Below, in pieces: positions 1 through 18,868 of a DNA stretch of 37,419 nt. The notes under the pieces were generated by a model. That model worked only from the letters and a program-made list of their open reading frames with translations, was not told where the DNA came from and did no database searches. Every line of letters begins with the position of its first letter. The first letter of the stretch is position 1. The DNA comes from an uncultured Chlorobiaceae bacterium (GTDB lineage Bacteria; Bacteroidota; Chlorobiia; Chlorobiales; Chlorobiaceae). Location: contig CAIXLG010000036.1 of assembly GCA_903920215.1 (NCBI GenBank), forward strand, positions 1 through 37,419. Direction: 5' to 3'. A program made the translations under genes and the position numbers.

Positions 1-1
1 A

Positions 2-202
2 ACAGATGTCGTTGACGAGGTCAACAAACTTGTTCCATCCATCCGTGAAAAATTCCCCGACATCGTCTTCTTTGGCGGACAGCTTGTCTTTACCAACGAA
101 ACAATCATGGATCGCTGGCTGCACAATTACACCGTTTTTGCCGTACAGCAGAACCTCTATGTCCACGGTATTCCCTTTGTGATTCTGCCGGTTAAGGTAT
201 AG
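2..202 (+). CDS. C-terminal end of a membrane permease (APC/KUP-like, possibly K+ transporter), partial
   Basis: The reading frame enters from the left edge and stops at TAG 200-202, leaving 66 residues. The visible part is the soluble C-terminal tail. It ends with an LHNYTVFAVQ stretch and then GIPFVILPVKV. From memory, bacterial APC-superfamily permeases and KUP-type K+ transporters have tails of this kind, with a Leu-His-Asn turn and a hydrophobic strand ending in LPxxV. The transmembrane part lies outside the window, so the substrate cannot be read. Potassium is suggested by the context: the next three genes form a copy of the sensing module of the kdp locus further right. An amino-acid permease remains possible. 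Confidence 0.5.
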   Translation, partial: TDVVDEVNKLVPSIREKFPDIVFFGGQLVFTNETIMDRWLHNYTVFAVQQNLYVHGIPFVILPVKV

Positions 203-245
203 CACTGTAAAGGTTCTATCAGCAATACATGCATGAAGGATACCT

Positions 246-2078: not shown

Positions 2079-2116
2079 CAACCTCGCGCATTGGTAAATA
2101 AGGAGGATCAAGAATC

Positions 2117-2209
2117 ATGAACGTTTATCATTACTTGTTTTTTGGAATACTTATCTTTTTTATCCTCGCAGGAGCCGCTGGAGTGATAGGTATTTTATTG
2201 CATCATTAA
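2117..2209 (+). CDS. 30-residue single-span membrane peptide (KdpF-like position)
   Basis: ATG 2117 to TAA 2207-2209, preceded by a strong ribosome site (AAGGAGG at 2100-2106). The peptide is one hydrophobic helix with a short polar start (MNVYHY) and a His-His end. KdpF is a single-span subunit of similar length that stabilises the KdpABC pump. In the kdp locus of this window kdpF lies directly after the paralogous kinase, exactly as this peptide follows its own kinase. I infer a KdpF-derived or functionally similar small membrane subunit acting with the adjacent permease or kinase. Sequence identity with KdpF is too short to judge. The strong SD and tight spacing (38 bases after the kinase stop, about 50 before the next start) argue that it is really translated. 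Confidence 0.6.
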   Translation: MNVYHYLFFGILIFFILAGAAGVIGILLHH

Positions 2210-2257
2210 ATGCATGGAAGCATAACCGGTTATCCCATCTTCAACAAAGGAGAACCC

Positions 2258-3883
2258 GTGGAAAGTAACAGGAACGACAGCTTTTTGCGTCTCATCCAGC
2301 GCTCGCAAAAAGGAAAGCTCAAAATTTATCTCGGTTACTCTTCAGGGGTTGGCAAAACCCTTGCGATGCTTCAGGAGGCGGAACGTCTCCATGAAAACGG
2401 TATTGATATTGTAGCTGGTTTTGTTGAGACTCATGAAAGAGGGGAGTTCGCATCCCTGCTTTCGAAGCTTGAGCTTATCCCCCGTAAAAAACAGATGTAT
2501 AGAGGGATAGAAATTACAGAGATGGATATTGACGCCATTTTGCAGCGCCAGCCATCGGTTGTTCTTGTTGATGAACTTCAGCATTCTAATGTACCGGGAA
2601 GCAAAAATGCCAAACGTTATGAAGATGTTGAGGAGATTCTTGCTGCCGGTATCCATGTAATTTCGACATTGAATATCCAGCATCTCGAAAGTCTCTATGA
2701 AACGGTTGAACAGGTTACTGGTATAAGGGTGAAAGACCGGGTGCCTGATCGGCTTTTGTCGCAGGCTGAACAGCTTGTCAATGTGGATATTACCCCCGAT
2801 GATTTGCGGCAGCGCCTGATTGAGGGAAAAATCTTTTCACCCGGCCAGCCAGGGACTCTTGTATCAGACTTTTTCAAGCCTGAAAGTCTTGAGCAGCTTC
2901 GTGAGTTGACTCTTCGGGAACTTGCTTCTCACATTGATTTGAAAAGGCGAACGCAACTCGCAGATGAATTTCCTTCGAATCCTGATCAAATTATGGTATG
3001 CCTCAGTTCGCATAGCCTGAACGGTGAGGCACTTGTTCGCTATGCATCGAGAATAGCGGGACGATTGAATAAAAACTGGTATGCCGTCTATGTGCAGAAG
3101 CTTGCAGAGAACTCTCCTGTATTGGATGAGGGATCGGATCACTGGGTTGCGGAGACTCTCGGTCTAGCCCGTGAGCTTGGCGCGGCAGTTTTTAACTATA
3201 AAGGTGATGATGCGGTGAAAACCATTCTGCAGTTTGCCCGGGAATACCGGGTCGGACATATCATTATTGGTAATTCGGGAGGAACACTTCCTTTGTGGCA
3301 GCGCATACAAGGGAAAAAGAGCGTTGTTGAACGATTGATTGATGAGTGTCGGGATATAAGTGTAACGGTCTTTGATACCCGGCAGGGTGGAGCTTCCGGT
3401 TCATCTCAGGGCAATGAAGCGCCCCTTGTCATGAAGAAGGATATTTCCAGGTTCGATAAATTGCCGCACAATGAATGGAAAGAGCTGGTCAGGAATGCAA
3501 AGGTGGTTGTTCTGGATGGTGTTGTTGAGCAAAAAAAAGCCTTCAGGCTGTTGCTTCATGAGTGCTGCATGGCTCGCCCCGATATCGATGAAGAGGAGGC
3601 ATGGAAGAGATTATTGGAGCGTGAAAAACAGGGTGGAACCTATGCCGGGTCGGAGATTGGAATACCCCATGCCAGACTCGATGGTCTGAAACAGCCAGCG
3701 GTTATTATCGGAGTAAGCAAAAGCGGGGTGTATGACAAGGAGTCGAAAAATAGAGCCCGTATTATTTTCCTTGTGCTCACCCCGATTTCAGATCCGAACG
3801 GTCACATCAAGATACTTGGCGTCATCAGCAACATGGCTTCTGACACTCAGTGGCGCAATGCCATGCTGCAAGAGGCGGGTTAA
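2258..3883 (+). CDS. Transmitter-less KdpD sensor fused to USP and PTS EIIA domains (copy 1)
   Basis: 541 residues from GTG 2258, chosen because AAGGAG lies about 7 bases upstream and the product then begins MESNRNDSFLRL, colinear with the copy at 23772-25451. An upstream ATG at 2210 would add 16 residues. Domains: KdpD N-terminal domain (about 15-225) with Walker A GYSSGVGKT at 26-34 and DELQH at 104-108; universal-stress domain (about 245-385); PTS EIIA type-2 domain (about 415-541) with phospho-acceptor His471 in IPHAR. The four TM helices, GAF and kinase transmitter of full KdpD (about 890 residues) are absent. In E. coli the KdpD N-domain tunes kinase activity and unphosphorylated EIIA-Ntr binds KdpD. 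I infer a regulatory adaptor for the upstream kinase. The canonical DELAHTN motif is altered to DELQHSN here. Confidence 0.9.
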   Translation: MESNRNDSFLRLIQRSQKGKLKIYLGYSSGVGKTLAMLQEAERLHENGIDIVAGFVETHERGEFASLLSKLELIPRKKQMYRGIEITEMDIDAILQRQPSVVLVDELQHSNVPGSKNAKRYEDVEEILAAGIHVISTLNIQHLESLYETVEQVTGIRVKDRVPDRLLSQAEQLVNVDITPDDLRQRLIEGKIFSPGQPGTLVSDFFKPESLEQLRELTLRELASHIDLKRRTQLADEFPSNPDQIMVCLSSHSLNGEALVRYASRIAGRLNKNWYAVYVQKLAENSPVLDEGSDHWVAETLGLARELGAAVFNYKGDDAVKTILQFAREYRVGHIIIGNSGGTLPLWQRIQGKKSVVERLIDECRDISVTVFDTRQGGASGSSQGNEAPLVMKKDISRFDKLPHNEWKELVRNAKVVVLDGVVEQKKAFRLLLHECCMARPDIDEEEAWKRLLEREKQGGTYAGSEIGIPHARLDGLKQPAVIIGVSKSGVYDKESKNRARIIFLVLTPISDPNGHIKILGVISNMASDTQWRNAMLQEAG

Positions 3884-3899
3884 ACGATGTGGGTCTCTC

Positions 3900-4271
3900 C
3901 TACAATGTCTGTTCAATGGAGTTCGGTGTTACTGCCATTACAGCACGTGCCCATGCAAATTTTGCTTTGGTTCCGTCAAAGTCAGCGCCTGAGGTTTCAA
4001 TGCTCGCGGTTCCTTTGATCAGGAAGCCGGTGCCAGGGCCCATATTTCCAGCGACCTTGCGGCTGCCAAGTGTAATCAATACCTGATTGTTAAAAGCAAT
4101 GTTCGCTTCTGTACGGTGCATATACCCTACAGGAATAAGGATGCGCTCAGCATCAGTAATGCGTACATAGCTGTTCCAGGTGTTGACCATATGCGGTCCA
4201 TCCTGCCCCAACGTAGCAATCGCAACCACGCCGTCATGCTTCAATACTTCCGTCAATTTCTCTGGAATCAT
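3900..4271 (-). CDS. Pyridoxamine 5'-phosphate oxidase-like FMN-binding protein
   Basis: 123 residues starting at the Met preceded by GAGG about 8 bases upstream; an in-frame Met 11 codons earlier lacks such a site. The fold is suggested by KHDGVVAIATLG near the N-terminus, WNSYVRI, ILIPVGYMHRTEANIAFN and QVLITLGSRK, as in small PNPOx-like split-barrel flavoproteins that bind FMN or related cofactors. These proteins reduce or bind small molecules in the cytoplasm; the substrate cannot be predicted. It converges with the KdpD-like gene, with a 16-base gap, and has no obvious operon partner. Confidence 0.75.
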   Translation of the reverse strand: MIPEKLTEVLKHDGVVAIATLGQDGPHMVNTWNSYVRITDAERILIPVGYMHRTEANIAFNNQVLITLGSRKVAGNMGPGTGFLIKGTASIETSGADFDGTKAKFAWARAVMAVTPNSIEQTL

Positions 4272-4561
4272 CTGTATGCCTCGATTATGTTGTATGTGTC
4301 TCAAAGAATGTAGTCCTGCAGATTAAGCTCCATCATTGTAAGGCTTTGCCGAGAAATTGCCAAATATTGTTAGCTTTGTCAGTGCTTATGTGCGGATAAA
4401 ACACTGGATATGATGTAAGCCGGTAACCTCACATAATCAATGTTCTAAAACAAATTTTGGCAATAAAATAAGAGAGCTTTACATACAGGAATCTTATTGA
4501 ACCAATCCCATTCGTTAAGCTCCAATTCCAAGCAAAACTGGAGAGCAAGATATGACAGTGT
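4272..4561. other. Intergenic stretch with a partial palindromic repeat
   Basis: No convincing gene here. The only structure I see is at about 4412-4437, where ATGTAAGC, GGTAA and CTCACATAAT match the middle of a larger palindrome at 21613-21648. The rest is AT-rich and unremarkable. Confidence 0.5.
4412..4437. repeat. Copy of dispersed palindromic element (degenerate)
   Basis: The segment reads as ATGTAAGC, a C, GGTAA, a C, then CTCACATAAT. The copy at 21619-21644 differs at only a few bases. Here the outer arms are eroded, whereas the other copy has perfect 11-base arms. It may be an insertion-sequence end, a recombinase site or a REP-like element. Confidence 0.5.
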
Positions 4562-4762
4562 CTAAAATACTTGAGCCTCATTGATGTGCCTGACTATCCT
4601 GAAGGCGTTTACTCTTGTTGAACGAGCGTTCTTCATGTCAATATTCCATGCAAAAATATGCCCTATGTTGAAAAGTGTGGCACATACCGCAGTATCAACG
4701 ATTTCCAGCTGAATAGAAAGCGATCGTTTCAGGAACTCCAACGTCTTTACATGGTCACTAAG
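4562..4762 (-). pseudogene. Unidentified coding-like fragment directly after the ABC exporter stop
   Basis: After the TAG of the ABC gene (4763-4765), the same minus-strand frame stays open for 66 codons to TAG at 4562-4564. The translation looks protein-like (KTLEFLKRSLSIQLEIVDT, then NIGHIFAWNIDMKNARST), but there is no start codon with a ribosome site and I do not recognise it. It could be the tail of a lost gene, a once-longer C-terminus, or chance. Confidence 0.3.
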
Positions 4763-6682
4763 CTATTTTGAGGATTTATTATTTCCTTCTATTTTTCCTA
4801 AAAACTGAATATCATAGAGATGCTTATAGAGACCATCAAGCTTAAGAAGTTCTTGATGATTACCCGTTTCTATGACACGACCACGATCAATGACAATGAT
4901 CCGGTCGGCATTCCGAACGGTAGACAGCCTATGAGCTACCACAAGAGCGGTACGATTTGCAAGCGCATGGTCAATAGCCTCTTGTACCACCTTTTCCGAT
5001 TCGTTGTCAAGAGCACTGGTTGCTTCATCTAAAATCAGAAATTCCGGGTTTTTTACTATAGCACGAGCAATGGCCAGTCTCTGGCGCTGGCCACCGGAAA
5101 GCTGTACACCACGGTCGCCAATCAGGGTTTCATACTTCTTGGGTTTTTCCTCAATGAATAGATGTGCATTGGCCATATTAGCCGCTGCAATGATCATCTC
5201 CCGCCTGATCTCACCATTGCTACCATAGGCAATATTCTCCCCAATTGTATCATTAAATAAAATCACATCCTGGTTGACCAGTCCAATCATACTTCTAAAC
5301 TGCTTGAAGTCATATTCGCGGATATCAACCCCGTCAATAGTGATCCGGCCTGAATCAACATCATAAAAACGTAGCAACAAGTCAACCATCGTAGACTTTC
5401 CAGAACCGGACTGCCCCACAAGCGCAACAATCTCCCCTTTTTTGATTTCTAAAGAAACATGATCGAGAACATTCGGAGCACCCGTTTCATTGCTGTACTT
5501 GAAGGAAACATCCTCAAACCTAATCTCATGGACGAAACTATTTATCGAACGAGTCCCATTGCTGATATCCGGCACTGTATCTAGCAGTTCAAACAAACGC
5601 TCTGCAGAGGCCTTTCCGACTGCCATCAGGGTATTGACCTCCCCTAATTCTTTGATTGGCCCCATCGTTGAATAAAGGGTGAAAATAAAAAGCATCAGTT
5701 CTGATGAAGTTATGTACCCATGAAACACCTCCAGACCACCAAACCAGAGCACTGTGGCAATGGTTGTCACAAACAGCGTTTCATTCATCGGTCCGATAAT
5801 ATTGCGAAGCATTCCTATTTTAATATCGAGTTTGCTGAAATTTTTGGTAAATGCCTGGAAGCGATCAAGTTCGACATTTTCGAATGCGTTCGACTTAATA
5901 ACCTTGATCCCACTAAATTTTTCCTGCAGTACCGAGTGCATATCTCCCATTTTAGTTCGTAAAACAACAGCAAGACCATTAACCTTGTTACCGATCACTC
6001 GTATAACGAAAAATATGCTCAGTGAAGTGACGGCTGCAAACAAAGTGAGTTTCCAGCTTATGATCAGAAGAGCTGCAACATAAACGACTATTGAAAATGG
6101 ATTTTGTAAAAAATTGATAAAAATTAAGCTAATCGTATCATTAACAGCCTGAACATCATTATAGACAAGGGTCATTAAGTCGCCTACTCGATTCTTGTTG
6201 AAATAATCCAGGTGCATCTCAATGATATTACTGAAAACATCATCCCTGAGACTCTTTGTGGACTTGGTCTTAATCCTGAACAGAAGCTGGCTGTTCAGGA
6301 AGACAAAGAGATTTTTCAAGGCAAAAGATGCAATCAGAAAAAGGCATATGTTCAAGAGTGTACGTTCTTTGGTCTCTGAATGAAATACTTTTGAAAAGGA
6401 TTCAGTCACAGAAGCCTTAAGCTTGTCACTATTTATTCCTTGAAAAACAAACGGATCGGATATGATGCTGATTGCCACAGCCTTTTTCTCAAAATCTTTA
6501 GTATGCTGATGCGCAGGAGCCTCAATGGTACTGTCAGCATTAAAAACAGCATTCAAAAGAGGAAGCATTGAGTAGATTGATACAATTCCTAGCAGAGAAG
6601 TCATCATACTGAGCATCACAACAAGCACCACTGTCCCTTTTGATGGGTGTATGTAGTGAAATAAACGGATAAATACGCCCAT
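4763..6682 (-). CDS. MsbA-like ABC exporter (fused TMD-NBD)
   Basis: 639 residues. The N-terminal half has six predicted TM helices (first at about 17-45) with an unusually long loop after TM1 (about 50-110). The sequence DYFNKNRVGDLMTLVYNDV fits the coupling region of type IV exporters. The NBD has Walker A GQSGSGKST at 423-431, Q-loop near LVNQD, signature LSGGQ at 528-532, Walker B FLILDE at 548-553 and switch His in VVAHRLST. It should work as a homodimer in the inner membrane. Two roles are plausible: lipid A or lipid flipping (MsbA-type), or export of the lasso peptide encoded at 8239. The lasso genes run the other way, with a dead transposase between, and no other exporter is seen. The sequence reads more like a general lipid exporter, so assignment to the lasso cluster is uncertain. 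Confidence 0.88.
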   Translation of the reverse strand: MGVFIRLFHYIHPSKGTVVLVVMLSMMTSLLGIVSIYSMLPLLNAVFNADSTIEAPAHQHTKDFEKKAVAISIISDPFVFQGINSDKLKASVTESFSKVFHSETKERTLLNICLFLIASFALKNLFVFLNSQLLFRIKTKSTKSLRDDVFSNIIEMHLDYFNKNRVGDLMTLVYNDVQAVNDTISLIFINFLQNPFSIVVYVAALLIISWKLTLFAAVTSLSIFFVIRVIGNKVNGLAVVLRTKMGDMHSVLQEKFSGIKVIKSNAFENVELDRFQAFTKNFSKLDIKIGMLRNIIGPMNETLFVTTIATVLWFGGLEVFHGYITSSELMLFIFTLYSTMGPIKELGEVNTLMAVGKASAERLFELLDTVPDISNGTRSINSFVHEIRFEDVSFKYSNETGAPNVLDHVSLEIKKGEIVALVGQSGSGKSTMVDLLLRFYDVDSGRITIDGVDIREYDFKQFRSMIGLVNQDVILFNDTIGENIAYGSNGEIRREMIIAAANMANAHLFIEEKPKKYETLIGDRGVQLSGGQRQRLAIARAIVKNPEFLILDEATSALDNESEKVVQEAIDHALANRTALVVAHRLSTVRNADRIIVIDRGRVIETGNHQELLKLDGLYKHLYDIQFLGKIEGNNKSSK

Positions 6683-6704
6683 ACAATGGAAATTTAATCT
6701 CAGC

Positions 6705-7793
6705 TTATAACTTGCACTTATTGCTTCGGCAATTAAAGGTGCTATTCTTTTGTATACCAGAGGTTCGAGCGATCGAAAAGTGTCTCAACTTTTCCTGGCA
6801 TCTTTTGTAAGACGCCTCAAATGAGAAATGGTGTTTTTCCGAATCTGTTTTTTTGTCCGCGATACTCCTCCCTTGTTGACATGTGCTGCAATTGTTCAAA
6901 TCACGGTTCATGTACTTGTCAGGGTTCAGTTCCGTTGAGTATGTAGGAAAATAAAATACCTCAATTTTATCGGTGTTCAACGCGAGCCATTCCTTGACTG
7001 GTTTGAAACGATGCACACGCAAATTATCAAGGATCAGGATGATCTTATGGCCAACATCCTTTACAAGCCGGTTCATAAATTGAAATTAGATTAATCTCTG
7101 GTAGTTCATCTCGCCCTCATACAGCATAAATCGCAGTTTTCCTCGATTACTAATTGCTGACATCATGCTGATATGCTCTTTTCGAGCATCCATGCGCAAT
7201 ACCATAGTCTTGCCAGAAGGTGCATAACCCCTTACAAGATTGATGTTTGTGGATATCCCAGCATCTTCGCCCCAGTAGATTTCAGTCTGCTCTGATTTGG
7301 CTTTAGTCTTGAGCTCAGGGAATAATTCCTGCATCAGGCGTTCAACCTCTACTGTCCTTTGCTCATAGGCTTTGCGCAATGGTTTTTGTGGGGTATAGCA
7401 CCAACGCGACAGATATTGCCCTACAGTACGCATCGGTATCTGTATGCCGAATTTCAGCTTGATCAACATTAGAATGGACTGACGGTCCCAAAGAGCAAAG
7501 GGAAGCATAGGCTGATCAGGACAATGATCGTTAATAATTTTCTGGATTGCCTTTTCCTGTTCAGTTGACAGGGTACGTTTGTCTCGGGTTTTTCGATCAC
7601 GCTTTGGTACTGAAAGCATCTTGTTGCTAGCTTGCAGAGACCATTGCCACCGCCGACTGGTGGTCTGCATTGAAAGACCTAAAAGCCCAGAAAAATCAAG
7701 ATTCTTTTTGCACTTTTTTCGAAGAGCCATGACCTGTTTGCAGAGGAGTTCGCGCTCACGGTCAGTTGCTTTTCTGAGATCTATTTTTTCCAT
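6705..7793 (-). pseudogene. IS630-family transposase, inactivated by nonsense and frameshift changes
   Basis: The N-terminal part (7086-7793) has HTH regions, then a first catalytic Asp in EIYWGEDAG. An in-frame TAA (7086-7088) interrupts it. The frame resumes three codons later with NRLVKDVGHKIILILDNLRV, YFPTYSTELNPD and NRDL, which carry the second and third DDE motifs. After NRDL the reading frame is wrong: another frame holds the expected C-terminus (ISHLRRLTKDAR and so on), again with a stop. At least two lesions make the element dead. I could not fix the terminal inverted repeats or the TA target duplication. It sits 22 bases upstream of the ABC exporter start, so it has replaced whatever originally lay there. 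Confidence 0.85.
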
Positions 7794-8117
7794 GGTCTCA
7801 ATATACTAGATCAAGAGCTATGATTGCCGAGTCAATCATTCACGTGTTTATCTACCGTCTTTAACATAAGAAGTAACGGAATAATAAAACGCGATATCAA
7901 GCTAAGCTATTTTATTTATGTATTTTACGCTACTCAGCTGTGCTCTCATAATTTTCTATACACTCTGAACAACAGCGTAATAACCTCACCCAGCCCTATA
8001 AGCATTTTTTTACTGAAAAATGGTCATGCAGAAGTTGTTATAACTAATTTCTTGCATTTGGTTCTCCAGATTACCATCGAGGTCTTGCTCGAAAATCGCT
8101 CTGAAGTGAAAATGGAG

Positions 8118-8147
8118 TTGATGTATTTGTTGCAAATATTTTACAAT
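8118..8147 (+). promoter_or_regulatory. Possible sigma-70-type promoter upstream of lasso precursor
   Basis: TTGATG (8118-8123) and TACAAT (8142-8147) are separated by 18 bases and lie about 90 bases before the precursor ATG. In AT-rich DNA such matches occur by chance, so this is only a candidate. Confidence 0.3.
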
Positions 8148-8198
8148 ACTATTCAGTGTTTATTTTTGTTTTTTACTGCGATTAGAGTAAGTTCTTCT

Positions 8199-8215
8199 AT
8201 TCGGATTTCCCGAAT
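8199..8215. repeat. Inverted repeat ATTCGG-N5-CCGAAT just upstream of precursor
   Basis: A six-base inverted repeat with a five-base spacer ends 23 bases before the precursor start. It could be an operator or a small 5' UTR hairpin. There is no long T-run, so it is not a clear terminator. Confidence 0.35.
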
Positions 8216-8238
8216 ATGTTAACAAAAAAAGCAAAACA

Positions 8239-8433
8239 ATGAAAAACGTAAACCACAAGCAAGCAAAGCCGGATTCGACCGTCAGCTCATCTCCTGAAAC
8301 CAAGCACCAACAGATCGGATCAAACTTTGGGTTCAAGCCAGTGAATACAATTAATGGTGCCGCAGCAAGAACAAAAGGAAATTACATGGATCACCCCAAG
8401 GAGAAATACTATTATATATACCCTAAACCATAA
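8239..8433 (+). CDS. Lasso peptide precursor (A protein)
   Basis: 64 residues. Residues 1-46 form a hydrophilic leader and 47-64 the predicted core GNYMDHPKEKYYYIYPKP. Supporting features: Thr45 at the penultimate leader position, as is typical of lasso leaders; Gly47 as core residue 1; Glu55 at core position 9, which allows a nine-residue Gly1-Glu9 macrolactam; and an aromatic tail (Tyr11-13, Tyr15) that can plug the ring. The leader contains FGFKPVNTING, where Pro34 and Gly40 have the spacing of the P-x-L-x3-G recognition motif, although Leu is Asn here and the upstream aromatic is shifted. The B and C maturation genes lie downstream on the same strand. The start ATG lacks a clear ribosome site. 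Predicted mass of the cyclised core (my arithmetic): about 2287.08 Da. Confidence 0.78.
   Translation: MKNVNHKQAKPDSTVSSSPETKHQQIGSNFGFKPVNTINGAAARTKGNYMDHPKEKYYYIYPKP
8377..8430 (+). other. Predicted lasso core peptide coding segment (18 residues)
   Basis: Codons 47-64 of the precursor. Ring candidate: Gly1 to Glu9. Asp5 is too close for a known lasso ring size (7-9). The tail residues 10-18 are Lys, three Tyr, Ile, Tyr, Pro, Lys, Pro. No Cys, so it would be a class II lasso peptide. Confidence 0.7.
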
Positions 8434-8741
8434 GTCGCCAATGTAGTTGAAGCCATGGGAAAGAGCCTGACCTTTGGTATCCGAGAACATAAAAAGCGCG
8501 TATCAAAATGTCAGAAACCGTATTGGTCGAACTCCAAACAGTAGATGGATACTATGCGCAAGCCGACTTGTTAGCTGGTCGGCTTTGCTTTTGATCGCAA
8601 TATATGGACTCACAACAAAAAAAAGAAGAACACATCAATAAGCTTTAACTCATTATTATTGTTTATTGAGCAAAAATTTAACAGGATATTCTATTTCAAT
8701 AATGTAAGTTCTTGTAGATTTCCTTAATAAAAGACTTGATA
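8434..8741. other. Gap between precursor and B gene, with a hairpin
   Basis: About 300 bases without a convincing gene. A 29-codon frame from ATG 8452 has no support. A strong hairpin at 8558-8592 may attenuate transcription between the precursor and maturation genes. DNA becomes markedly AT-rich after about 8600. Confidence 0.5.
8558..8592 (+). terminator. Hairpin after the lasso precursor gene
   Basis: GCAAGCCGAC (8558-8567) pairs with GTCGGCTTTGC (8578-8588, one bulged T) around a ten-base loop, followed by TTTT. It could be a terminator or attenuator that gives more precursor than enzyme mRNA, a common arrangement in RiPP operons. Confidence 0.65.
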
Positions 8742-9491
8742 ATGTATTTTCACCCTAACAAATATATTTATCTAACTTATTTCAATGATGAAATAATAGC
8801 TCTTGATTTACAAAAAGATCAATATATTTTTTTATCACAATTTTCTGAGGTTATATATTTTGCTTTAAATAATGAATTCAAATATGTACAAGATAAATAT
8901 GTGTTAGCTGGTAATAATGATAACCACATGCCTGATGATTTTAATAATGCAATTAAATATTTGAGAGAGATAGGGGTTTTATCAAAGATTAATTATGATT
9001 ATTCATCTGCTATTCAATTGAAAAAAACCAATTTCTCTGCTGGAGCACCAAATATTGACTGGCGAATATCTATTGGTGATTTAGATATCAAGGTCAAAAT
9101 ATCAATGATCTTTGAGGCTTACGTTTTGCTTATAAAAGTATATTTTATTATTAATATATTTGGATTTTATAGTCTAATAAAAGCTATAAAAAGAAAGAAT
9201 ATTGGGTGTGTTAGAAAAGATGCCAAAGAATTTGATATTCTTGCTACTGCTTTAAATCAGGCATGCTTCTATTTTCCGATAAAAACCAAATGTCTTGAAT
9301 GGTCAGCGGCACTAACCTTTATGGGGCTAAGAAGAAAATGGAAATGTAATCTTGAAATAGGAGTGCAAAATTTACCCTTCGCAGCACATGCATGGGTAAA
9401 AGCTGATGATAAGGTAATAGCTGACAGCCACAATTTACCAGAAACTTTATCAGTTATTCTATCAGAACCTTTTTTGATAAGGAGTAATTAA
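8742..9491 (+). CDS. Lasso peptide B protein: RRE (B1) fused to transglutaminase-like leader peptidase (B2)
   Basis: 249 residues from ATG 8742; a TTG two codons earlier is also possible. Residues 1-90 resemble the PqqD-like RiPP recognition element that binds the leader. Residues about 160-249 are the transglutaminase-like cysteine protease domain, with Cys184 in KCLEWSAAL, the LEIGVQNLPFAAHAWV motif with His216, and Asp228 as the likely third catalytic residue. A hydrophobic linker lies at about 121-145. It should bind the precursor leader and cleave after Lys46. The fused B1-B2 form is the McjB-type arrangement of proteobacterial clusters. Its stop abuts the GTG of the cyclase gene, so translation is probably coupled. 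Composition is AT-rich compared with the flanking chromosome, suggesting transfer. Confidence 0.9.
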   Translation: MYFHPNKYIYLTYFNDEIIALDLQKDQYIFLSQFSEVIYFALNNEFKYVQDKYVLAGNNDNHMPDDFNNAIKYLREIGVLSKINYDYSSAIQLKKTNFSAGAPNIDWRISIGDLDIKVKISMIFEAYVLLIKVYFIINIFGFYSLIKAIKRKNIGCVRKDAKEFDILATALNQACFYFPIKTKCLEWSAALTFMGLRRKWKCNLEIGVQNLPFAAHAWVKADDKVIADSHNLPETLSVILSEPFLIRSN

Positions 9492-11288
9492 GTGTTTATT
9501 GCAGGCTTTTTTAACCAGGTTTCTGATAATATATTCAGTAAATTAGATGCTATTGTAGGGGACAAAATATGTGGAGAGAGGGTTTATTTTAAGAATAAAC
9601 TAGTAAGTATTGTTGTCGGAAAAACATCTTCTTCTGTAGATCAAGGCAGAATAATAAGCCTTGATAATATTTTATTGGTAGGCAAGGTCTTTAGTAAAAT
9701 AAGTTTTCATTCAATAACAAAAGAAGATTTAGAGAAACAATCATCAATACCTAATAATCTTTTTGTAAATAAATACTGGGGTAACTATATTTATGTAAGA
9801 GTAAAAGATAATCAAGTAACAGTACTTCGAGATCCTGTAGGGCAAACCCCATTGTTCTATACTAAATTAGATTCAGGAGAATACTTATTTTCATCTGAGA
9901 TTGAAACCTTGGTTGATATGTTGAAAACCCGCCCTGGATTTAATTGGAAATATTTTTCTTCTTACGCATTACATGCATTTATTACAACAGAACAAACAGC
10001 TTTTAATGAAATTTATGAGCTGCCACATGGGTGTCAAATCTCCTACAACTCTACAAAGGGAATTACGGATACTTCTATAGTCTGGAACCCACTAAACTAT
10101 TTCAGTGGCTATAAAGGCTCGGAAAATGCAATGAATAATATTGTAAATATAACTTCAAATGTTATTGAAAGTTGGACTAATAGCGCCGATGTAATATCCC
10201 TAGACTTTTCAGGGGGCACTGACTCTACAGCTATTCTTTTGTTATTAAATAAGATACTAAACAAGAATAAAGAGATAAGGCTAATAAATCAATATCATCC
10301 TGACGTTTCGTCTTCTGATGAAAGGAAGTATGCACGTGCGATAGCAATGGACTTAGGCCTTCATTTAATAGAGTTTGATCATTCGGATAGTTTACCGTAT
10401 GACCCTGCCGTGAAATCAGCGCGATTTAAACCTAATTGGCCAACATCAATCTTATCCTATTTGAAAGTTAACAATGATATAAGTTCTTTGTTAGAAGGAA
10501 GTAAGAATGTTACCTATATGAGCGGACACGGAGGAGATCATATATTTATGTGTCCTCCTCCAGTAACATCTCTTTGTGATTACTTAATTGAAAAAGGTGG
10601 AAAAGAATTTAATACAAAAGCAATGGAGCTATATGCCATATTTCGCGAGCCGTTATCTTCAATGGCAAGCAATATACTTAAAGGCTTCATTTCTTATTAT
10701 TTTCACTCACAGTACACCCAATCATTTTATGCTATCAACAAAATCAAAAGCGCCCCTTGGTTTAATAAAGAAGTCTATTTGTTAGAAAAGCAAATGCATT
10801 ACCATCCTTTTTTTGATAATGAAAAAACCACTAAGAGCTTGCCTGGAAAATTTTGGCTTATTGAGGGCATATACAGCGGTTTATCTACTATAAAGACAGA
10901 TATAAGGGATGATGGAACTAACCCAATATTTTTTCCTTTATTTTCGCAGCCACTATTAGAACTCGCGTTATCTATACCCACCTATGAGTCATATCGCTAC
11001 GGGCACAATAGATATCTTTTCAGAAAAGCTATAAGTGATACTTTCAAAAGTGATGCTGTTTGGAGACACGATAAGGGAGAAACTAGCGGCATTGAACAAA
11101 GGGGTATAAAAAGAAATGAAAAACGAATATTGGAGCTTTGTTTAGATGGGAATTTGGTGAAGCAAGGATTAGTAAACAAAGAAAAGCTGCACACAGGTAT
11201 GCTTAAGATAATGAATGGTCAAACGGATTACCAATGGGCAGTTACTGATATAATTTGTGCAGAAACATTTATAAATTTATGGAGCTAA
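9492..11288 (+). CDS. Lasso peptide C protein: asparagine-synthetase-like macrolactam cyclase
   Basis: 598 residues from GTG 9492, with AAGGAG about 8 bases upstream and directly after the TAA of the B gene. The N-terminal half follows the class II glutamine amidotransferase fold (ELPHGCQISY near 176-185), but residue 2 is Phe instead of the catalytic Cys, so it cannot release ammonia from glutamine. The C-terminal half is the ATP-dependent synthetase domain with PP-loop SGGTDS at 240-245. In lasso biosynthesis this enzyme adenylates the ring Glu or Asp side chain and joins it to the new N-terminus of the core. The acceptor would be Glu9 of the core encoded at 8377-8430. Length matches the family. 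Confidence 0.9.
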   Translation: MFIAGFFNQVSDNIFSKLDAIVGDKICGERVYFKNKLVSIVVGKTSSSVDQGRIISLDNILLVGKVFSKISFHSITKEDLEKQSSIPNNLFVNKYWGNYIYVRVKDNQVTVLRDPVGQTPLFYTKLDSGEYLFSSEIETLVDMLKTRPGFNWKYFSSYALHAFITTEQTAFNEIYELPHGCQISYNSTKGITDTSIVWNPLNYFSGYKGSENAMNNIVNITSNVIESWTNSADVISLDFSGGTDSTAILLLLNKILNKNKEIRLINQYHPDVSSSDERKYARAIAMDLGLHLIEFDHSDSLPYDPAVKSARFKPNWPTSILSYLKVNNDISSLLEGSKNVTYMSGHGGDHIFMCPPPVTSLCDYLIEKGGKEFNTKAMELYAIFREPLSSMASNILKGFISYYFHSQYTQSFYAINKIKSAPWFNKEVYLLEKQMHYHPFFDNEKTTKSLPGKFWLIEGIYSGLSTIKTDIRDDGTNPIFFPLFSQPLLELALSIPTYESYRYGHNRYLFRKAISDTFKSDAVWRHDKGETSGIEQRGIKRNEKRILELCLDGNLVKQGLVNKEKLHTGMLKIMNGQTDYQWAVTDIICAETFINLWS

Positions 11289-11344
11289 ATCTATAGTAAT
11301 TCTTTTTTATGATTTTCAGCAACTTTATTTAATATAAAAATGTA

Positions 11345-11737
11345 ATGGAACAAAATATATTTGGACGTTTCTTGCTCATAATTATGCTTTCTTCTTATCT
11401 ATCATCGTGTGCTGTTGCTGCATCTGTTGCTACAAATCAATTGATTTCAAGAACGACTAAAGCCATAGATAGTAAATTGAAACACAATGATATTAACGAT
11501 AGAAAAGGGAGTGACAAAGAAGATAAAAGAAGACTTCATGTGAAATCCAGACATAGTGACAAACAGAAAAAAAATGGTCAAGTAGAACATGATGATCAAC
11601 GGCAGGTTACAGATGGAAATATTAAAACTAGTTCCCAAAAATCTACACTGGTAACAATGAAGCCAGAAAAACCACAGAATACAAAGAGTCAAATTAAACC
11701 AGTGAGTCCCCAAAATACATTGATACCTATCAAATAA
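11345..11737 (+). CDS. Small Lys/Gln-rich lipoprotein of unknown function
   Basis: 130 residues. N-terminal hydrophobic signal (about 7-20) with a lipobox LSSC (Cys22), so it should be lipidated. The rest is low-complexity and hydrophilic: an Asp/Lys/Arg-rich middle, then a Lys/Pro/Gln/Thr-rich tail with repeated KP and PQNT units. No domain is recognised. It follows the lasso cyclase by 56 bases in the same AT-rich block and could belong to that transcript, for instance in immunity or envelope attachment, but nothing in the sequence shows this. Confidence 0.6.
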   Translation: MEQNIFGRFLLIIMLSSYLSSCAVAASVATNQLISRTTKAIDSKLKHNDINDRKGSDKEDKRRLHVKSRHSDKQKKNGQVEHDDQRQVTDGNIKTSSQKSTLVTMKPEKPQNTKSQIKPVSPQNTLIPIK

Positions 11738-11901
11738 TTTGGGAAAGACTAACGGATTTGTTAAATGCGCAGAATGTAATCATTTTTGATCGTAAAAATT
11801 CAATTTATGATAAATAAATAAAGTGCAGAGAAAGCTGAATTCTATACATTTGCTATGATATAGCCTATTTACTTTTCGGTTACAAATAATCTTTCAACTC
11901 T

Positions 11902-12228
11902 ATGGATTCAATAAGAATCATGCAAAATGTAATTATAGTATGCGTTGTATGCTCAACTTTTATTTTTTGTTCTGTTAATGCAGTATCTACTAAAACAATT
12001 GAAACATTGAAGATTGCTTCTCATCAAGGAAATGATCAAGCTGCGTTCAATCTTGGAAATATTTACGCTAATGGTATAGGAGTATCACAAAACTATACTG
12101 AGGCAGAAAAGTGGTTTCGCATTGCTGCTGTTCAGGGGAATACAAAAGCACAGTGCACTCTTGGAATGCTGTTTTATGCTGGTAAAGGACTAACTCAAGA
12201 CTATGTAATCGTTAGAGAATTACTATAA
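11902..12228 (+). CDS. Secreted Sel1-repeat protein, truncated
   Basis: 108 residues with an N-terminal signal peptide (hydrophobic about 9-26, ending VNA). Two Sel1 (TPR-like) units follow: AAFNLGNIYANGIGVSQNYTEAEKWFRIAA, then a second that breaks off after GLTQDY. A further Sel1 unit without a start lies downstream at 12369-12581, and about 130 bases of inverted-repeat-containing DNA separate the two. I read this as one Sel1 gene broken by an insertion or decay. Sel1 repeats mediate protein-protein contacts; no specific role is visible. Confidence 0.6.
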   Translation: MDSIRIMQNVIIVCVVCSTFIFCSVNAVSTKTIETLKIASHQGNDQAAFNLGNIYANGIGVSQNYTEAEKWFRIAAVQGNTKAQCTLGMLFYAGKGLTQDYVIVRELL

Positions 12229-12231
12229 CAT

Positions 12232-12353
12232 AATTCGTCATAAATATTGTAGTTGAATTATATTGATTATATGCTAACGCATTATAAAAAAATGCATTTC
12301 ATGACGAATTGTACTGTAAAAGAGAGCTGATTCGCAATTCAAATATTACAGTA
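12232..12353. repeat. Nested inverted repeats splitting the Sel1 gene
   Basis: AATTCGTCAT (12232-12241) pairs with ATGACGAATT (12301-12310). A second pair, TACTGTAA (12312-12319) and TTACAGTA (12346-12353), follows immediately. The block is AT-rich and lies exactly between the two Sel1 fragments. It may be a small non-autonomous (MITE-like) insertion, though target duplications were not found. Confidence 0.5.
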
Positions 12354-12368
12354 ATTTTCTAACAAGCC

Positions 12369-12581
12369 CATTATGCCGAAGCGGAGAAATGGTTTCGACT
12401 TGCCGCTGACCAAGGGGATGCGGAAGCGAAAATTGCATTGAAAAAATTAAAAAAAAACCAGCGGGCTAAGCGATCTGCAATAAGTAACTCAGTAAGCTTT
12501 TCTGAAATCATTGAGTATTTGATTGATAGCTACCACGGAGGGCGACCACAAGGGTCGCCCGTACGGCGCAATAATAGCTAA
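12369..12581 (+). pseudogene. Sel1-repeat fragment (3' part of split gene)
   Basis: The frame from about 12369 to TAA 12579-12581 reads HYAEAEKWFRLAADQGDAEA, a canonical Sel1 unit, followed by a Lys-rich tail. It has no start codon or signal peptide and continues the theme of the gene at 11902-12228. The GGGCGACC palindrome lies inside the last codons and so contributes to the C-terminus. Confidence 0.6.
12540..12560. repeat. Perfect palindrome GGGCGACC-N5-GGTCGCCC (REP-like)
   Basis: Arms 12540-12547 and 12553-12560 form an eight-base-pair GC-rich stem in AT-rich surroundings. I recall this motif as a dispersed repeat in many environmental bacterial genomes. It could also act as a transcription terminator, but lacks a T-run. 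Confidence 0.65.
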
Positions 12582-12741
12582 TCTGTTTTGTGTGTAGCAT
12601 GTATTACGGACTCATTTTCTATGAAGCGCTTATAAAATCCGTTTTCTGAAACAACTCTAACACCATTTATTAAAGTTTATATTCAATTACTCAATAACCA
12701 TAATGAGTTAATAGGCGGAGAGGAGCGAGATCTGTAGTAAC

Positions 12742-12866
12742 ATGGTCAACACAAATGAGCTGCCAAAAAACTTCGTTACTCCGACGGATAATGCCCTTAT
12801 CGAAAGATTTAACGGCCTAAGTCGCGATGAGCACCTGCATATAACCTGGTTTCCAGGCCTTGATTT
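12742..12866 (+). pseudogene. IS3-family transposase (OrfB) fragment
   Basis: The segment PTDNALIERFNGLSRDEHLH followed by ITWFPGL corresponds to the end of the integrase catalytic core of IS3-type OrfB (PxDNAxxESFNGxxRDExL, with the catalytic Glu equivalent in LIERFNG). The preceding codons and everything after about 12865 are not homologous, so only about 40 residues survive. The remnant lies against the end of the PIN-domain gene. Confidence 0.7.
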
Positions 12867-13373
12867 TTATCCAAGCCTGACTCTTAAATCGCGAAGCATT
12901 GCAAATGTATTAAGATACTCGACATTAAAAGCATCACAAACATTAGGAATAGGGATCCTTCTTCTTATAGTCGAATTATACTCCTCGTGCGTTACTACGA
13001 CATAATTGTAAACAGCAGCATAGGCAACTAACCAGGAGTCAGCCAGATCAAACCGGGCAAATTCAGCTTTTGCTGAGGGTGAGTACTGCACATGTCTTTG
13101 AGACCATACCATAATTTCAGCATATTTAGCAAGTACCAGGGCATCGTCACATGTCACAAAAGAATCAATAAATGACCCATTTATCCAATCAACTAATTGA
13201 TCAGAACCACGATTAATTTCATTCTTTACATGATCAATACTTTTTAATTTCTCATTATCAGCTTGAATTAACAATTTATCCCAAAATACAGGGGCAATAT
13301 CAAAGGCATAATAATGACGTGCGGCATTAATCAAGACATTGGCATCCAATAGAAATATTAAAGAGTTACTCAT
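12867..13373 (-). CDS. PIN-domain ribonuclease-like toxin (DUF4411 type)
   Basis: 168 residues. The N-terminal strand FLLDANVLINAARH carries the first acidic residue (Asp10). Further conserved acidic residues are in HVKNEINRG (Glu52) and FDLADSWLVAYA (Asp109, Asp112), and THEE lies near 128-131. This is the layout of PIN nucleases of the DUF4411 group, which are usually paired with an XRE/ImmA-type metallopeptidase. Its ATG overlaps the stop of the upstream gene by four bases (13370-13373), indicating translational coupling. It probably acts as an RNase toxin in the cytoplasm. Confidence 0.82.
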   Translation of the reverse strand: MSNSLIFLLDANVLINAARHYYAFDIAPVFWDKLLIQADNEKLKSIDHVKNEINRGSDQLVDWINGSFIDSFVTCDDALVLAKYAEIMVWSQRHVQYSPSAKAEFARFDLADSWLVAYAAVYNYVVVTHEEYNSTIRRRIPIPNVCDAFNVEYLNTFAMLRDLRVRLG

Positions 13374-14524
13374 ACTTTCTTCCCAAATATCTCATCAGCA
13401 TAAGTTTGAAATGTATCACGCTTCAATCCCGTTAAATGATAGGCTTCGGTATAAGCTGTTTTCCCCTCACGAACCGATTGAATCAACATTTGCCCAAAGC
13501 GGTTACCAATTCGAAGGTTCTGTGTAGGATAAAAATCACCACCACCGGCATCAGATTTTTTTTTCGCTGCAAGCTTAATCTCTCTGCTTTGCCAGTCACG
13601 ATAATAATGGAAAAAAACCTTTCTCTCTATAAGCCCAAGATCCAGGCATCGTCGTGCAGCAACAATCTCACTAACCTTAAAATGCCTTGCTATATTTTGA
13701 AAACGATTAGCATTGCCTCCAATTGCAGGCCAGAGATTTATCAGTAGTGTTGTTGGCACTAGAAATTCAGCGGCAATTTGGTTACAAACCATTTCGGCAG
13801 AATCAGCTGCAGGTTGCAGTCGACGTAAATCGAATGCAGCACTGATACCAAGCCAGAGGTGAGCCAGTTCATGAGCCAAGGTAAACATCTGCGCTGCTTT
13901 TCCATCTGCCCCATTGACAAAAACCAAGGGCGCATATTGGTCAACCAAGACGAATCCCCTGAATTCCTGAGGATCCAGTTTGCGAGAAGTGTTATTTCCA
14001 ACCACACCGTTAACCATAACCATAATTCCAGCCTCTTCAATCTTCCTCTCAAGCCCCCTTAATGCATCAGACCATGTTGGCTGACTTTTTGCCCAACCAT
14101 CATTAATGCCTAATACTTTCCTGATTTGGGCAGCAATATCTATGGGATTATCAGTAATTGATGCAGAGCCAATAAAAGGTAATGGAGCATGCCCCTGCTC
14201 AGTCAAGCAGTCCCGCATCCATGCCTGCCGTTGTTGCATCTTGTAAACGGTATCAAGAAGTTCAGGACTGAATTCTTGTACTGTCTCACTTGTCAATGTC
14301 CTGAAGTTTGTAATAGGTAAACTTTCTTCAGGTGGGCTTGTGAGTAATAAATATCCAAATGGAACCGCGGCAGCTTTTGCAAAATCCTGAAGTTGAAGAA
14401 AAGTTGGCTGAGCCGTTCCGCTAAGCCACGCGCCTATTTTTTTGAATTTATGTTCCAATTTCTCCTGTCGGCGAGACCGTTGTATCGCCCACTCAAGAAC
14501 TTGGGGAGTAATAGCAATCCGCAT
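13370..14524 (-). CDS. XRE/ImmA-IrrE family protein with HExxH metallopeptidase motif (antitoxin partner)
   Basis: 384 residues from ATG 14524; GTG 14530 would add two. The N-terminal 65 residues resemble a short HTH module (KIGAWLSGTAQPTFLQLQDF). The C-terminal ImmA/IrrE domain has the zinc motif HELAH at 218-222 within FTLAHELAHLWLG. ImmA cleaves repressors in other systems. Here, in front of a PIN gene with a four-base overlap, it is expected to control or neutralise the toxin. Such pairs (COG2856 with DUF4411) are found in mobile or variable regions, matching the surrounding remnants. Confidence 0.85.
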   Translation of the reverse strand: MRIAITPQVLEWAIQRSRRQEKLEHKFKKIGAWLSGTAQPTFLQLQDFAKAAAVPFGYLLLTSPPEESLPITNFRTLTSETVQEFSPELLDTVYKMQQRQAWMRDCLTEQGHAPLPFIGSASITDNPIDIAAQIRKVLGINDGWAKSQPTWSDALRGLERKIEEAGIMVMVNGVVGNNTSRKLDPQEFRGFVLVDQYAPLVFVNGADGKAAQMFTLAHELAHLWLGISAAFDLRRLQPAADSAEMVCNQIAAEFLVPTTLLINLWPAIGGNANRFQNIARHFKVSEIVAARRCLDLGLIERKVFFHYYRDWQSREIKLAAKKKSDAGGGDFYPTQNLRIGNRFGQMLIQSVREGKTAYTEAYHLTGLKRDTFQTYADEIFGKKV

Positions 14525-14647
14525 TACCACATACCAAATAAAATTTCGAAGGAAAACGGCAGAAATATTTTAATACTCAAAGCCACTGTAGGGAGCGTCT
14601 CCCAATTTAACAAAAACATTGAGTATTCTGGTGAAAGTGTACCACTG

Positions 14648-14905
14648 ATTTCATCAGGCCGTAGCGGGTGGGTGGTGGATAGTCCAGCAACAGGCAACAC
14701 AGGTTACATGCGGCATTTCGGTTGCCTTTGGTGGGCTCGATGAGCTTATTCACCTCGGCAACAACAAGGTGTTTTCGTTATTTCCATGCTGCCGGAATGA
14801 CGAACTTGTTTTTAAGCCAGTTAGAAAAAAAGGGTTCATCCATTTCACCTACCGCCATATCCAAAAACGCGTTAACAGCTTTGACTTCTCTTGACTTCAG
14901 GTTCG
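14648..14905. repeat. Diverged repeat, copy A (partner at 22141-22268)
   Basis: 14648-14691 aligns by eye with 22141-22182 (shared core GATAGTCCAGCAA), and 14852-14905 with 22217-22268 (shared core GCGTTAACAGCTT). The spacer is about 160 bases here but only about 35 in the other copy, so one has lost or gained about 125 bases. Confidence 0.6.
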
Positions 14906-14948
14906 ATCCGGTACCAAAAAAGTTCTCTCCGTCGGGGGTTGCTGAATT
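14778..14948 (-). pseudogene. C-terminal gene fragment of unknown family
   Basis: The minus strand is open for 56 codons up to TAA 14778-14780, with a protein-like sequence (TGSNLKSREVKAVNAFLDMA, EPFFSNWLKNKFVIPAAWK) but no start. The copy near 22217-22268 encodes a degenerate version (SSAVEAVNAVLNLAAVG). The shared reading frame suggests both derive from one protein-coding gene that was duplicated and lost. Family unknown. Confidence 0.4.
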
Positions 14949-15112
14949 TTATAATAGCTCTCAATAATTAGAGTTTTAGAATTTATTCATTCATGAATAA
15001 ATTCGTTTTTGAATAAAAAAATCATTCATTCCAGTTCACTCATCACAGAATGGATTTAATATTGGCAACCTTTCCTTCCTCTTGCTGTTTCGAGGCTACG
15101 CTTGGGGTGTTG

Positions 15113-15346
15113 TCAGTATATTTTTCTGCCCCATCGCATAGCGGCGAGGGATGCAAGGCTGAGCAGGAAAAAACCTGCAATGAGAGGGAGGACAGTCCCG
15201 TTGTAGCATTGACCGATTGCGGTTCCTGCTATGAGTGAGATGAAGGTTGAGAGGGAGATAGTAGGTGCAATATGGCGGGTGGCACAACCCGGAGCAATGA
15301 TTTTTAGCGCGCTACTGCTTGCTGGCGTGATAACGGGCATTGCCAA
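15113..15346 (-). pseudogene. C-terminal remnant of an MFS drug-efflux transporter (Bcr/CflA-like)
   Basis: 77 codons that fit the last two TM helices of a Bcr/CflA-type MFS transporter: SLSTFISLIAGTAIGQCYNG, then TVLPLIAGFFLLSLASLAAM and a basic end. The first 30 codons do not fit the family and are probably frame-shifted. The upstream ten helices are missing. I treat it as a decayed gene. Confidence 0.55.
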
Positions 15347-15458
15347 TTCTGTGCTCCACGTCTGGCATTGGCAGAAGTGGACACCGGTGATGGTGAGTGA
15401 AACGATAATGCATATCAGTCTGGCGGAATGGAAAGCACCACAGATAAAGGGACAAAAA

Positions 15459-15486
15459 AAAGGCCATTTACTGAAGAATGGCCTTT
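15459..15486 (-). terminator. Intrinsic terminator of the DUF2934 genes
   Basis: AAAGGCCATT (15459-15468) and AATGGCCTTT (15477-15486) form a ten-base-pair stem with an eight-base loop. On the minus strand it is followed by a run of eight T residues. It ends 24 bases downstream of the DUF2934 gene at 15511-15669. Confidence 0.85.
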
Positions 15487-15510
15487 AATCTGATACTGCG
15501 AAGAAGTGAT

Positions 15511-15669
15511 TCAGTTATTCAAGTATTTTTCAGCTTCAATCCAATTCTCGATATCTGTATCGTTGTTTGAACCTTTTTCTTCCCATAGATAATAAGCTAT
15601 AAGTCTAATATCCTCTTCAAGCGGTACCGGTGACTCTACTATACTGTTGTTCGTCTTGCTTGTCATCAT
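15511..15669 (-). CDS. DUF2934 small protein, copy 1
   Basis: 52 residues starting MMTSKTNNSI and ending in EAEKYLNN. The core IRLIAYYLWEEKGSNNDTDI followed by ENWIEAE matches DUF2934 (I-R-x-x-A-Y-x-L-W-x-x-x-G-x-x-x-x-D-x-x-x-W-x-x-A-E). The function of the family is unknown. It is a tandem duplicate of the next gene on the same strand, with a strong terminator just downstream. The start could be either of two adjacent ATG codons. Confidence 0.8.
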   Translation of the reverse strand: MMTSKTNNSIVESPVPLEEDIRLIAYYLWEEKGSNNDTDIENWIEAEKYLNN

Positions 15670-15710
15670 TAACGTTGTTGACTAATTCTTCCAAAGTGAA
15701 TATCGCGCGA

Positions 15711-15875
15711 TTAAAGCATCACATTTTTTTCCAAGTATGTTTCCGCAGCAATCCAATCCTCGATATCTGCACCATTGTTTGAGCCTTTTTCTTCCCATAG
15801 ATAATAAGCCATCAGTCTGATATCCTCTTCAGACGGTTCCGGTGACTTTACTGTATTCATCGTCTTACTCTTCAT
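15711..15875 (-). CDS. DUF2934 small protein, copy 2
   Basis: 54 residues (MKSKTMNTVK to LEKNVML) with core IRLMAYYLWEEKGSNNGADI followed by EDWIAAE. It is the upstream member of the tandem pair. The shared DNA extends beyond the coding part into the CGCGATTAAA segment near each gene start, so the duplicated unit is about 205 bases. Close similarity indicates a recent duplication with both copies kept intact. Confidence 0.8.
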   Translation of the reverse strand: MKSKTMNTVKSPEPSEEDIRLMAYYLWEEKGSNNGADIEDWIAAETYLEKNVML

Positions 15876-16183
15876 GTGTGCACTAGTTAACTAATTTGTC
15901 TGAGCTGATAAATCACGCGATTAAAATATCGCATTTTCTTGTTTATCACGTCACACTATAACGAATAAACAAGGTCTTTACTAAGATTATTCTATATAAT
16001 TATTTTTATTCTGCCTGCTCCTGCCCAGCACTTGCTAAGCGCTTCAGCGTTGCTCTCCCGTGATGATGGTTGGGTTCTTGCTTGCCCGGTGGTTACGGCG
16101 AGTGGCATTGGGGGCACTTACTACCGAGTACTATTGTTATCATTTCAATATATCTTTTGAATCCACGATTTTGATAATTCATA
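15876..16183. other. Gap before the hybrid kinase
   Basis: I see no gene. The stretch 16005-16130 is noticeably richer in G and C than its flanks and is not translatable over any length. It may be a fragment of an older gene. No clear promoter for the kinase was found. Confidence 0.4.
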
Positions 16184-18814: not shown

Positions 18815-18868
18815 CCACTCTATGTTACAGAGGGATTTGTAAGGCATAACCTTTGAATTTGAATAACC

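What the first reader, a model, noticed from the sequence alone, without database searches (positions are those of the whole stretch)
8239..11288. Lasso-peptide gene cluster with McjB-type fused B protein in a probable green sulfur bacterium
Three consecutive genes match precursor, fused RRE/transglutaminase leader peptidase and asparagine-synthetase-like cyclase. Cys184/His216/Asp228 of B and the SGGTDS PP-loop of C are all present, while the amidotransferase Cys2 of C is replaced by Phe as in lasso cyclases. The genes are AT-rich compared with the chromosome on both sides, which points to transfer. I am not aware of a characterised lasso peptide from this phylum.
Basis: partly seen in the sequence, partly recalled or inferred. 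Interest (0 to 1): 0.93.

Follow-up and report, generated by a model that had tools for sequence, protein, structure and literature searches.

The report
Lasso-peptide genes in green sulfur bacterium
A green sulfur bacterium carries a compact three-gene set that should make a small knotted (lasso) peptide; the kind of system is well known, but this copy is alone among the related genomes searched, was probably acquired from elsewhere, and lacks the export gene that its closest relatives have.

Summary
A (8239-8433), B (8742-9491) and C (9492-11288) are a lasso-peptide precursor, a fused leader-recognition/leader-peptidase protein and a lasso cyclase. B scores well over the curated lasso-B2 cut-off; its Cys184/His216/Asp228 are invariant in all relatives aligned; its predicted N-terminal domain matches solved lasso B1 proteins (Z 8.6-9.8). 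C is kin to lasso cyclases over its whole length. An automatic motif test (Thr at -2, Gly1, Asp/Glu at 7-9) finds exactly one forward-strand hit upstream of B in this window and in 8 of 10 other lasso loci, none on the reverse strand; background is about 0.4% of ORFs. The core GNYMDHPKEKYYYIYPKP with a Gly1-Glu9 ring gives 2287.077 Da.
The host is a green sulfur bacterium (FMO gene present). The cluster is absent from the 64 other genomes of the genus searched and sits at a variable locus; its nearest kin (32-37%) are A-B-C-D clusters in MAGs of other phyla. Transfer is well supported. Corrections: no D exporter follows C; A itself is not AT-rich; another genome of the genus carries an unrelated split-B lasso cluster, so lasso genes are not unique here. 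New member of a known kind; no product has been shown.

The parts
8239..8433 (+). lasso precursor gene A, 64 aa; leader codons 1-46 (8239-8376), core codons 47-64 (8377-8430) GNYMDHPKEKYYYIYPKP
   Evidence: only forward ORF in the 700 bases upstream of B with Thr(-2), Gly1 and an acidic residue at 7-9; same position as A in 8 of 10 other lasso loci
8377..8430 (+). predicted core peptide, 18 residues; ring Gly1-Glu9, loop/tail KYYYIYPKP; 2287.077 Da as macrolactam
   Evidence: motif and mass computed; ring position inferred
8560..8585 (+). 9-bp stem-loop followed by T-rich tail between A and B; possible attenuating terminator
   Evidence: pattern scan, but 1.6 such sites are expected by chance in the region scanned; weak
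8742..9491 (+). gene B, 249 aa: fused RiPP-recognition domain and cysteine leader peptidase (McjB-type)
   Evidence: NF033537 75.1 bits, PF13471 69.3 bits; full-length relatives 33-37%; invariant C184/H216/D228
8742..8990 (+). RRE (B1-like) domain of B, residues 1-83
   Evidence: AlphaFold model aligned to lasso B1 proteins 6jx3 Z 9.8 and 5v1v Z 8.6
9111..9470 (+). transglutaminase-like cysteine protease (B2) domain of B, residues 124-243; codons of Cys184 at 9291, His216 at 9387, Asp228 at 9423
   Evidence: NF033537 match 124-240; fold matches to cysteine proteases and transglutaminases, modest Z 4-6
9492..11288 (+). gene C, 598 aa: asparagine-synthetase-like lasso cyclase; PP-loop SGGTDS at 10209-10226; Cys2 replaced by Phe
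   Evidence: PF00733 55.2 bits; NF033561 and NF033535 hits below cut-off; 32-35% full-length identity to C of four A-B-C-D clusters

Best explanation
A horizontally acquired lasso-peptide cassette A-B-C of the microcin-J25 type (fused B). The N-terminal domain of B binds the leader of A; the cysteine peptidase domain of B cuts between Lys(-1) and Gly1, with Thr(-2) as recognition residue; C adenylates Glu9 and joins it to the Gly1 amine around the threaded tail, giving an 18-residue lasso of 2287.08 Da. Shown here: gene content, order, domain identity, catalytic residues, precursor motif, absence from the 64 other genomes of the genus searched, and lack of a neighbouring D gene. Inferred: the cleavage site, ring size, threading, expression, export by another transporter of the cell, and any antibacterial role.
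For: B is over the lasso-B2 cut-off with Cys/His/Asp invariant in every relative aligned; B1-type fold at its N-terminus, best matches two solved lasso B1-leader complexes. C is related over its whole length to C of four A-B-C-D clusters (32-35%, E to 1e-114) and to lasso C of Sphingobium, Sphingomonas and Acinetobacter plasmids. The precursor motif was found without hand-picking in the window and 8 of 10 other lasso loci, 0 on the reverse strand; background 0.4%. Thr at -2 is found in 94% of lasso leaders and is needed for microcin J25 (PMC11420955). B and C are contiguous with a good ribosome-binding site for C. Transfer: absent from 64 other genomes of the genus, other gene content at the same site in G161 and G197, nearest kin in other phyla.
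Against: No D exporter or isopeptidase lies next to C, although the four closest relatives have D overlapping the end of C, so the cassette might be incomplete. A has no clear Shine-Dalgarno and a base composition unlike B and C. No homologue of A was found by sequence, as is usual for lasso precursors. The AlphaFold model of C was unusable. No expression or mass data.
Confidence: 0.9

Rival explanations
1. A decaying or incomplete lasso cluster: B and C are still open but the peptide is not made or not exported, because D was lost after the transfer.
For: D is present behind C in all four closest relatives and absent here, with no remnant detectable by tblastn between 7794 and 14600. Broken insertion sequences lie on both sides: an IS630-type transposase in two frames at 6705-7793 and an IS3-type integrase fragment near 12742. 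The best matches of D elsewhere in the genome are general ABC exporters at 30-33%.
Against: B and C are full length, with all catalytic residues kept and tightly coupled. Proteobacterial A-B-C clusters without D exist, such as Sphingomonas paeninsulae, which however has an isopeptidase and a TonB receptor next to it.
Confidence: 0.25
2. B and C act on a different precursor than the 8239 ORF, for instance a short ORF between A and B (8508-8594, MSETVLVELQTVDGYYAQADLLAGRLCF).
For: The A-B gap of 308 bases is longer than in the relatives (about 106-210) and holds small ORFs; more than one precursor per lasso cluster is known (own knowledge).
Against: The 8508 ORF has a 13-residue leader, Thr at -3 instead of -2, and its end coincides with the stem-loop; the 8239 ORF alone passes the motif test.
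Confidence: 0.06
3. The genes are a true cluster but belong to a contaminating or misjoined contig of another organism in this draft genome.
For: B and C have low GC and their nearest relatives are in other phyla.
Against: Both flanks of the same contig are collinear with one contig of the sister genome G161 (95.3% over 4.4 kb on the left, 97.0% over 2.6 kb on the right), and the genome is 99.7% complete, 1.4% contaminated, with the FMO gene.
Confidence: 0.03

Closest known systems
Lasso A-B-C-D clusters in MAGs JAIESK010000104 (Alphaproteobacteria), JAFEGW010000006 (Verrucomicrobia), CAMBTM010000020 (labelled Rhizobium sp. Q54), PLXY01000011 (Parachlamydiales)
   Same: gene order A-B-C on one strand, fused B, full-length B (33-37%) and C (32-35%), precursor with Thr(-2) and Gly1, ring residue at 8 or 9
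   Different: those have an ABC exporter D overlapping the end of C; the window has none. Leaders and cores are unrelated in sequence.
Microcin J25 and acinetodin/klebsidin-type clusters (mcjABCD)
   Same: fused B with Cys-His-Asp protease, asparagine-synthetase-like C without Cys2; leader ending in Thr-X before Gly1, as in the annotated Acinetobacter soli cluster
   Different: identity only about 23-27% for B and 22-26% for C; no D; core sequence unrelated
Benenodin-type A-B-C clusters of sphingomonads (e.g. Sphingomonas paeninsulae)
   Same: A-B-C order without an adjacent D
   Different: followed by isopeptidase and TonB receptor, which the window lacks; C identity about 23%
Split-B lasso cluster of G177, same genus (locus L058), paeninodin-like by gene content
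   Same: a lasso cyclase (358 bits to NF033535) and B2 in the same genus
   Different: separate B1 and B2, HPr-kinase-like and nucleotidyltransferase-like genes; its C is far from the window's C in the tree
Putative lasso cluster of the amoeba symbiont Amoebophilus asiaticus (Aasi_0899-0902; PMC8831229, PMC3423634)
   Same: lasso cluster in Bacteroidota, flanked by insertion sequences, shared with alphaproteobacterial amoeba symbionts
   Different: not compared here by sequence; taken only from these papers

Membership tests
lasso peptide biosynthetic cluster, class II, fused B (microcin J25 type) | B protein with RRE domain fused to a transglutaminase-like Cys-His-Asp leader peptidase | tested here: met
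lasso peptide biosynthetic cluster, class II, fused B (microcin J25 type) | C protein: asparagine-synthetase-like cyclase with SGGxDS PP-loop and no catalytic Cys2 | tested here: met
   NCBIfam lasso-cyclase models are hit but under their curated cut-offs, as for the C of the A-B-C-D relative L066
lasso peptide biosynthetic cluster, class II, fused B (microcin J25 type) | short precursor next to B with Thr(-2), Gly1 and Asp/Glu at 7, 8 or 9, no cysteine pair in the core | tested here: met
lasso peptide biosynthetic cluster, class II, fused B (microcin J25 type) | dedicated ABC exporter D next to C (present in mcjABCD, not in every lasso cluster) | tested here: not met
   no ORF or remnant related to D between 7794 and 14600; the ABC gene at 4763-6682 is a genus MsbA copy
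lasso peptide biosynthetic cluster, class II, fused B (microcin J25 type) | product is a threaded macrolactam | not testable with these tools
   needs mass spectrometry and NMR or carboxypeptidase/thermal tests
lasso cluster with isopeptidase (astexin/benenodin type) | isopeptidase gene (AtxE2 family) next to C | tested here: not met
   genes after C are an unassigned 130-aa ORF, a Sel1-repeat protein and a DUF4411/M78 pair

The most novel reading that the evidence does not exclude
A working lasso peptide of a green sulfur bacterium, made by a diverged branch of a lasso system otherwise found here only in Alphaproteobacteria, Verrucomicrobia and Chlamydiae MAGs (perhaps the one described in amoeba symbionts), and exported without its own D protein, possibly through the extra MsbA-type exporter encoded 1.6 kb upstream.
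Probability: 0.15. Interest if true: 0.5.

Novelty: new member of a known kind. Interest (0 to 1): 0.35.

Why it matters
Lasso peptides are stable, knotted and often antibacterial. No paper in the searched library mentions a lasso peptide together with Chlorobium, so an active product may be a first for green sulfur bacteria and would show how such a cassette crosses phyla. The kind of system, its enzymes and its mechanism are well known, so the interest lies in the host, the new core sequence and the missing exporter.

Tried and rejected
(1) Search of species genomes with C alone gave no relatives; a small B alignment did. (2) The ABC gene at 4763-6682 as the missing D: rejected, since 73-75% identical copies occur across the genus in genomes without this cluster. 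(3) B2-family hits in G117, G201, G327 and G350 as lasso clusters: rejected for G117, G201 and G350, as no cyclase lies near them in the stretches read; the short G327 contig was not read in detail. (4) Solved-structure sequence search with B and C: nothing relevant; the fold comparison of B worked. (5) AlphaFold of C: mean pLDDT 38, not used. (6) Viral contigs with the C alignment: no relatives. (7) Pfam and NCBIfam on A: none. (8) Inverted repeats bounding the island: nothing convincing. (9) Precursor of the G177 cluster: none convincing found.

Full report
Observation. A is 8239-8433 (64 aa). C starts at GTG 9492, directly behind the B stop codon with AAGGAG upstream. The predicted core GNYMDHPKEKYYYIYPKP has a lasso mass of 2287.077 Da, m/z 1144.546 as 2+, as stated.

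B. It matches the curated lasso B2 model NF033537 at 75.1 bits (cut-off 33) and Pfam Transglut_core3. Neither library showed the N-terminal domain, so B was modelled from an 11-sequence alignment (mean pLDDT 77). The best solved matches of residues 1-84 are the lasso B1-leader complexes 6jx3 (Z 9.8) and TbiB1 5v1v (Z 8.6), ahead of other RRE-containing proteins. The C-terminal half resembles cysteine proteases and transglutaminases, at modest Z. Cys184, His216 and Asp228 are invariant in both alignments. This is a fused, McjB-type B; the mechanism assigned to it is that of McjB (PMC11420955).

C. It carries the asparagine-synthetase domain, SGGTDS at residues 240-245 and Phe at position 2. NCBIfam lasso-cyclase models are hit below their curated cut-offs, as happens for the C of the A-B-C-D relative in L066. 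By tblastn it is kin to lasso C proteins of sphingomonads and Acinetobacter.

Relatives. A scan of species genomes with a four-sequence B alignment found four full-length relatives at 33-37% in MAGs labelled Alphaproteobacteria, Verrucomicrobia, Rhizobium and Parachlamydiales. All have C at 32-35% over the whole length and an ABC exporter D overlapping the end of C. In a tree of C proteins the window lies nearest these four (path about 1.9-2.2, next 3.9) and far from the lasso C of another genome of its own genus; the fork itself is not strongly supported. In 394 genomes drawn from the phylum, no other carries this subfamily.

Precursor. The motif test was: Thr at -2, Gly1, Asp/Glu at 7-9, core 13-27 residues, leader at least 15. 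It was run on all ORFs of 35-110 aa within 700 bases upstream of B in 11 loci. The window and eight others have exactly one forward hit each, none has a reverse hit, and two have none. Among 1061 small ORFs in six frames of the window and six genus stretches, five pass, one of them A itself. With three candidate ORFs upstream of B this makes chance roughly 1%. A ring closed at residue 7-9 and Thr at -2 are ordinary for the class (94% Thr; PMC11420955).

Host and transfer. The genome has the FMO protein of green sulfur bacteria. Window 1-4401 and 18741-21340 align to one contig of the sister genome G161 at 95-97%, where 5.4 kb of other genes stand in place of the window's 14.3 kb; G197 has the DUF4411/M78 pair of the window at the same site but other genes instead of the lasso genes. 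The 948 bases in front of B are found in none of the 64 other genus genomes. B and C have GC 29-34% with GC3 20-28%, A 41.5% with GC3 46%. So the cassette lies in a variable locus flanked by remnants of insertion sequences, and B and C look foreign; A may have a different history or be constrained by its peptide.

What is missing. No D, isopeptidase or remnant of D lies between 7794 and 14600. The ABC gene at 4763-6682, on the other strand, is a second MsbA-type gene, 73-75% identical to copies in other genomes of the genus. Whether it serves as exporter is open. The ORF at 11345 and the Sel1-repeat protein at 11902 have no lasso-related match.

Known or new. In the same genus G177 holds a lasso cluster with PqqD-like B1, B2, HPr-kinase-like gene and a cyclase scoring 358 bits; so lasso genes in green sulfur bacteria are not unique to this window. 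A lasso cluster is also published for Amoebophilus asiaticus, with relatives in alphaproteobacterial amoeba symbionts (PMC8831229; PMC3423634); I did not compare it by sequence. The library searched has no paper naming both lasso peptides and Chlorobium; most subscription journals are not in it. Verdict: a sound prediction of a new member of a known kind, function unproved.

Noticed in passing
4763-6682 (-): Second MsbA-type ABC exporter of this genome, 62% identical to the other copy (contig C180) but 73-75% to copies in other genomes of the genus; apparently itself gained from another lineage of the genus, next to the lasso island.
   Followed up: partly
6705-7793 (-): IS630-type transposase (HTH_33, DDE_3) split into two frames, hence probably dead.
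   Followed up: partly
12742-12880 (+): Short fragment of an IS3-type integrase (rve_3).
   Followed up: no
12867-14530 (-): DUF4411 gene and an M78 (ImmA/IrrE-like) peptidase gene overlapping by a few bases; toxin-antitoxin-like pair, 92% identical at the same variable locus in genome G197.
   Followed up: partly
4401-18741: Hotspot of gene turnover: the same site holds oxidoreductase genes in G161 and IS3 plus AAA-ATPase genes in G197.
   Followed up: yes
L058:8356-11970 (genome G177): Separate lasso cluster of split-B type with HPr-kinase-like and nucleotidyltransferase-like genes in the same genus; no convincing precursor found.
   Followed up: partly
L062, L059, L061 (genomes G117, G201, G350): Lasso-B2-family proteins without a cyclase, each beside a nucleotidyltransferase-like gene and a conserved 309-aa protein, with radical SAM genes in G201: a possible different RiPP system.
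   Followed up: no
L064:274-4788, L066:4206-8754: Lasso A-B-C-D clusters in a Verrucomicrobia and a Parachlamydiales MAG, with cores GSVGKFHEDRAEPRPNAV and GTPGNFVEDSPTRPRPNAC.
   Followed up: partly
8508-8594 (+): 28-aa ORF with a Gly...Asp7 pattern between A and B; probably chance, ends in the stem-loop.
   Followed up: partly
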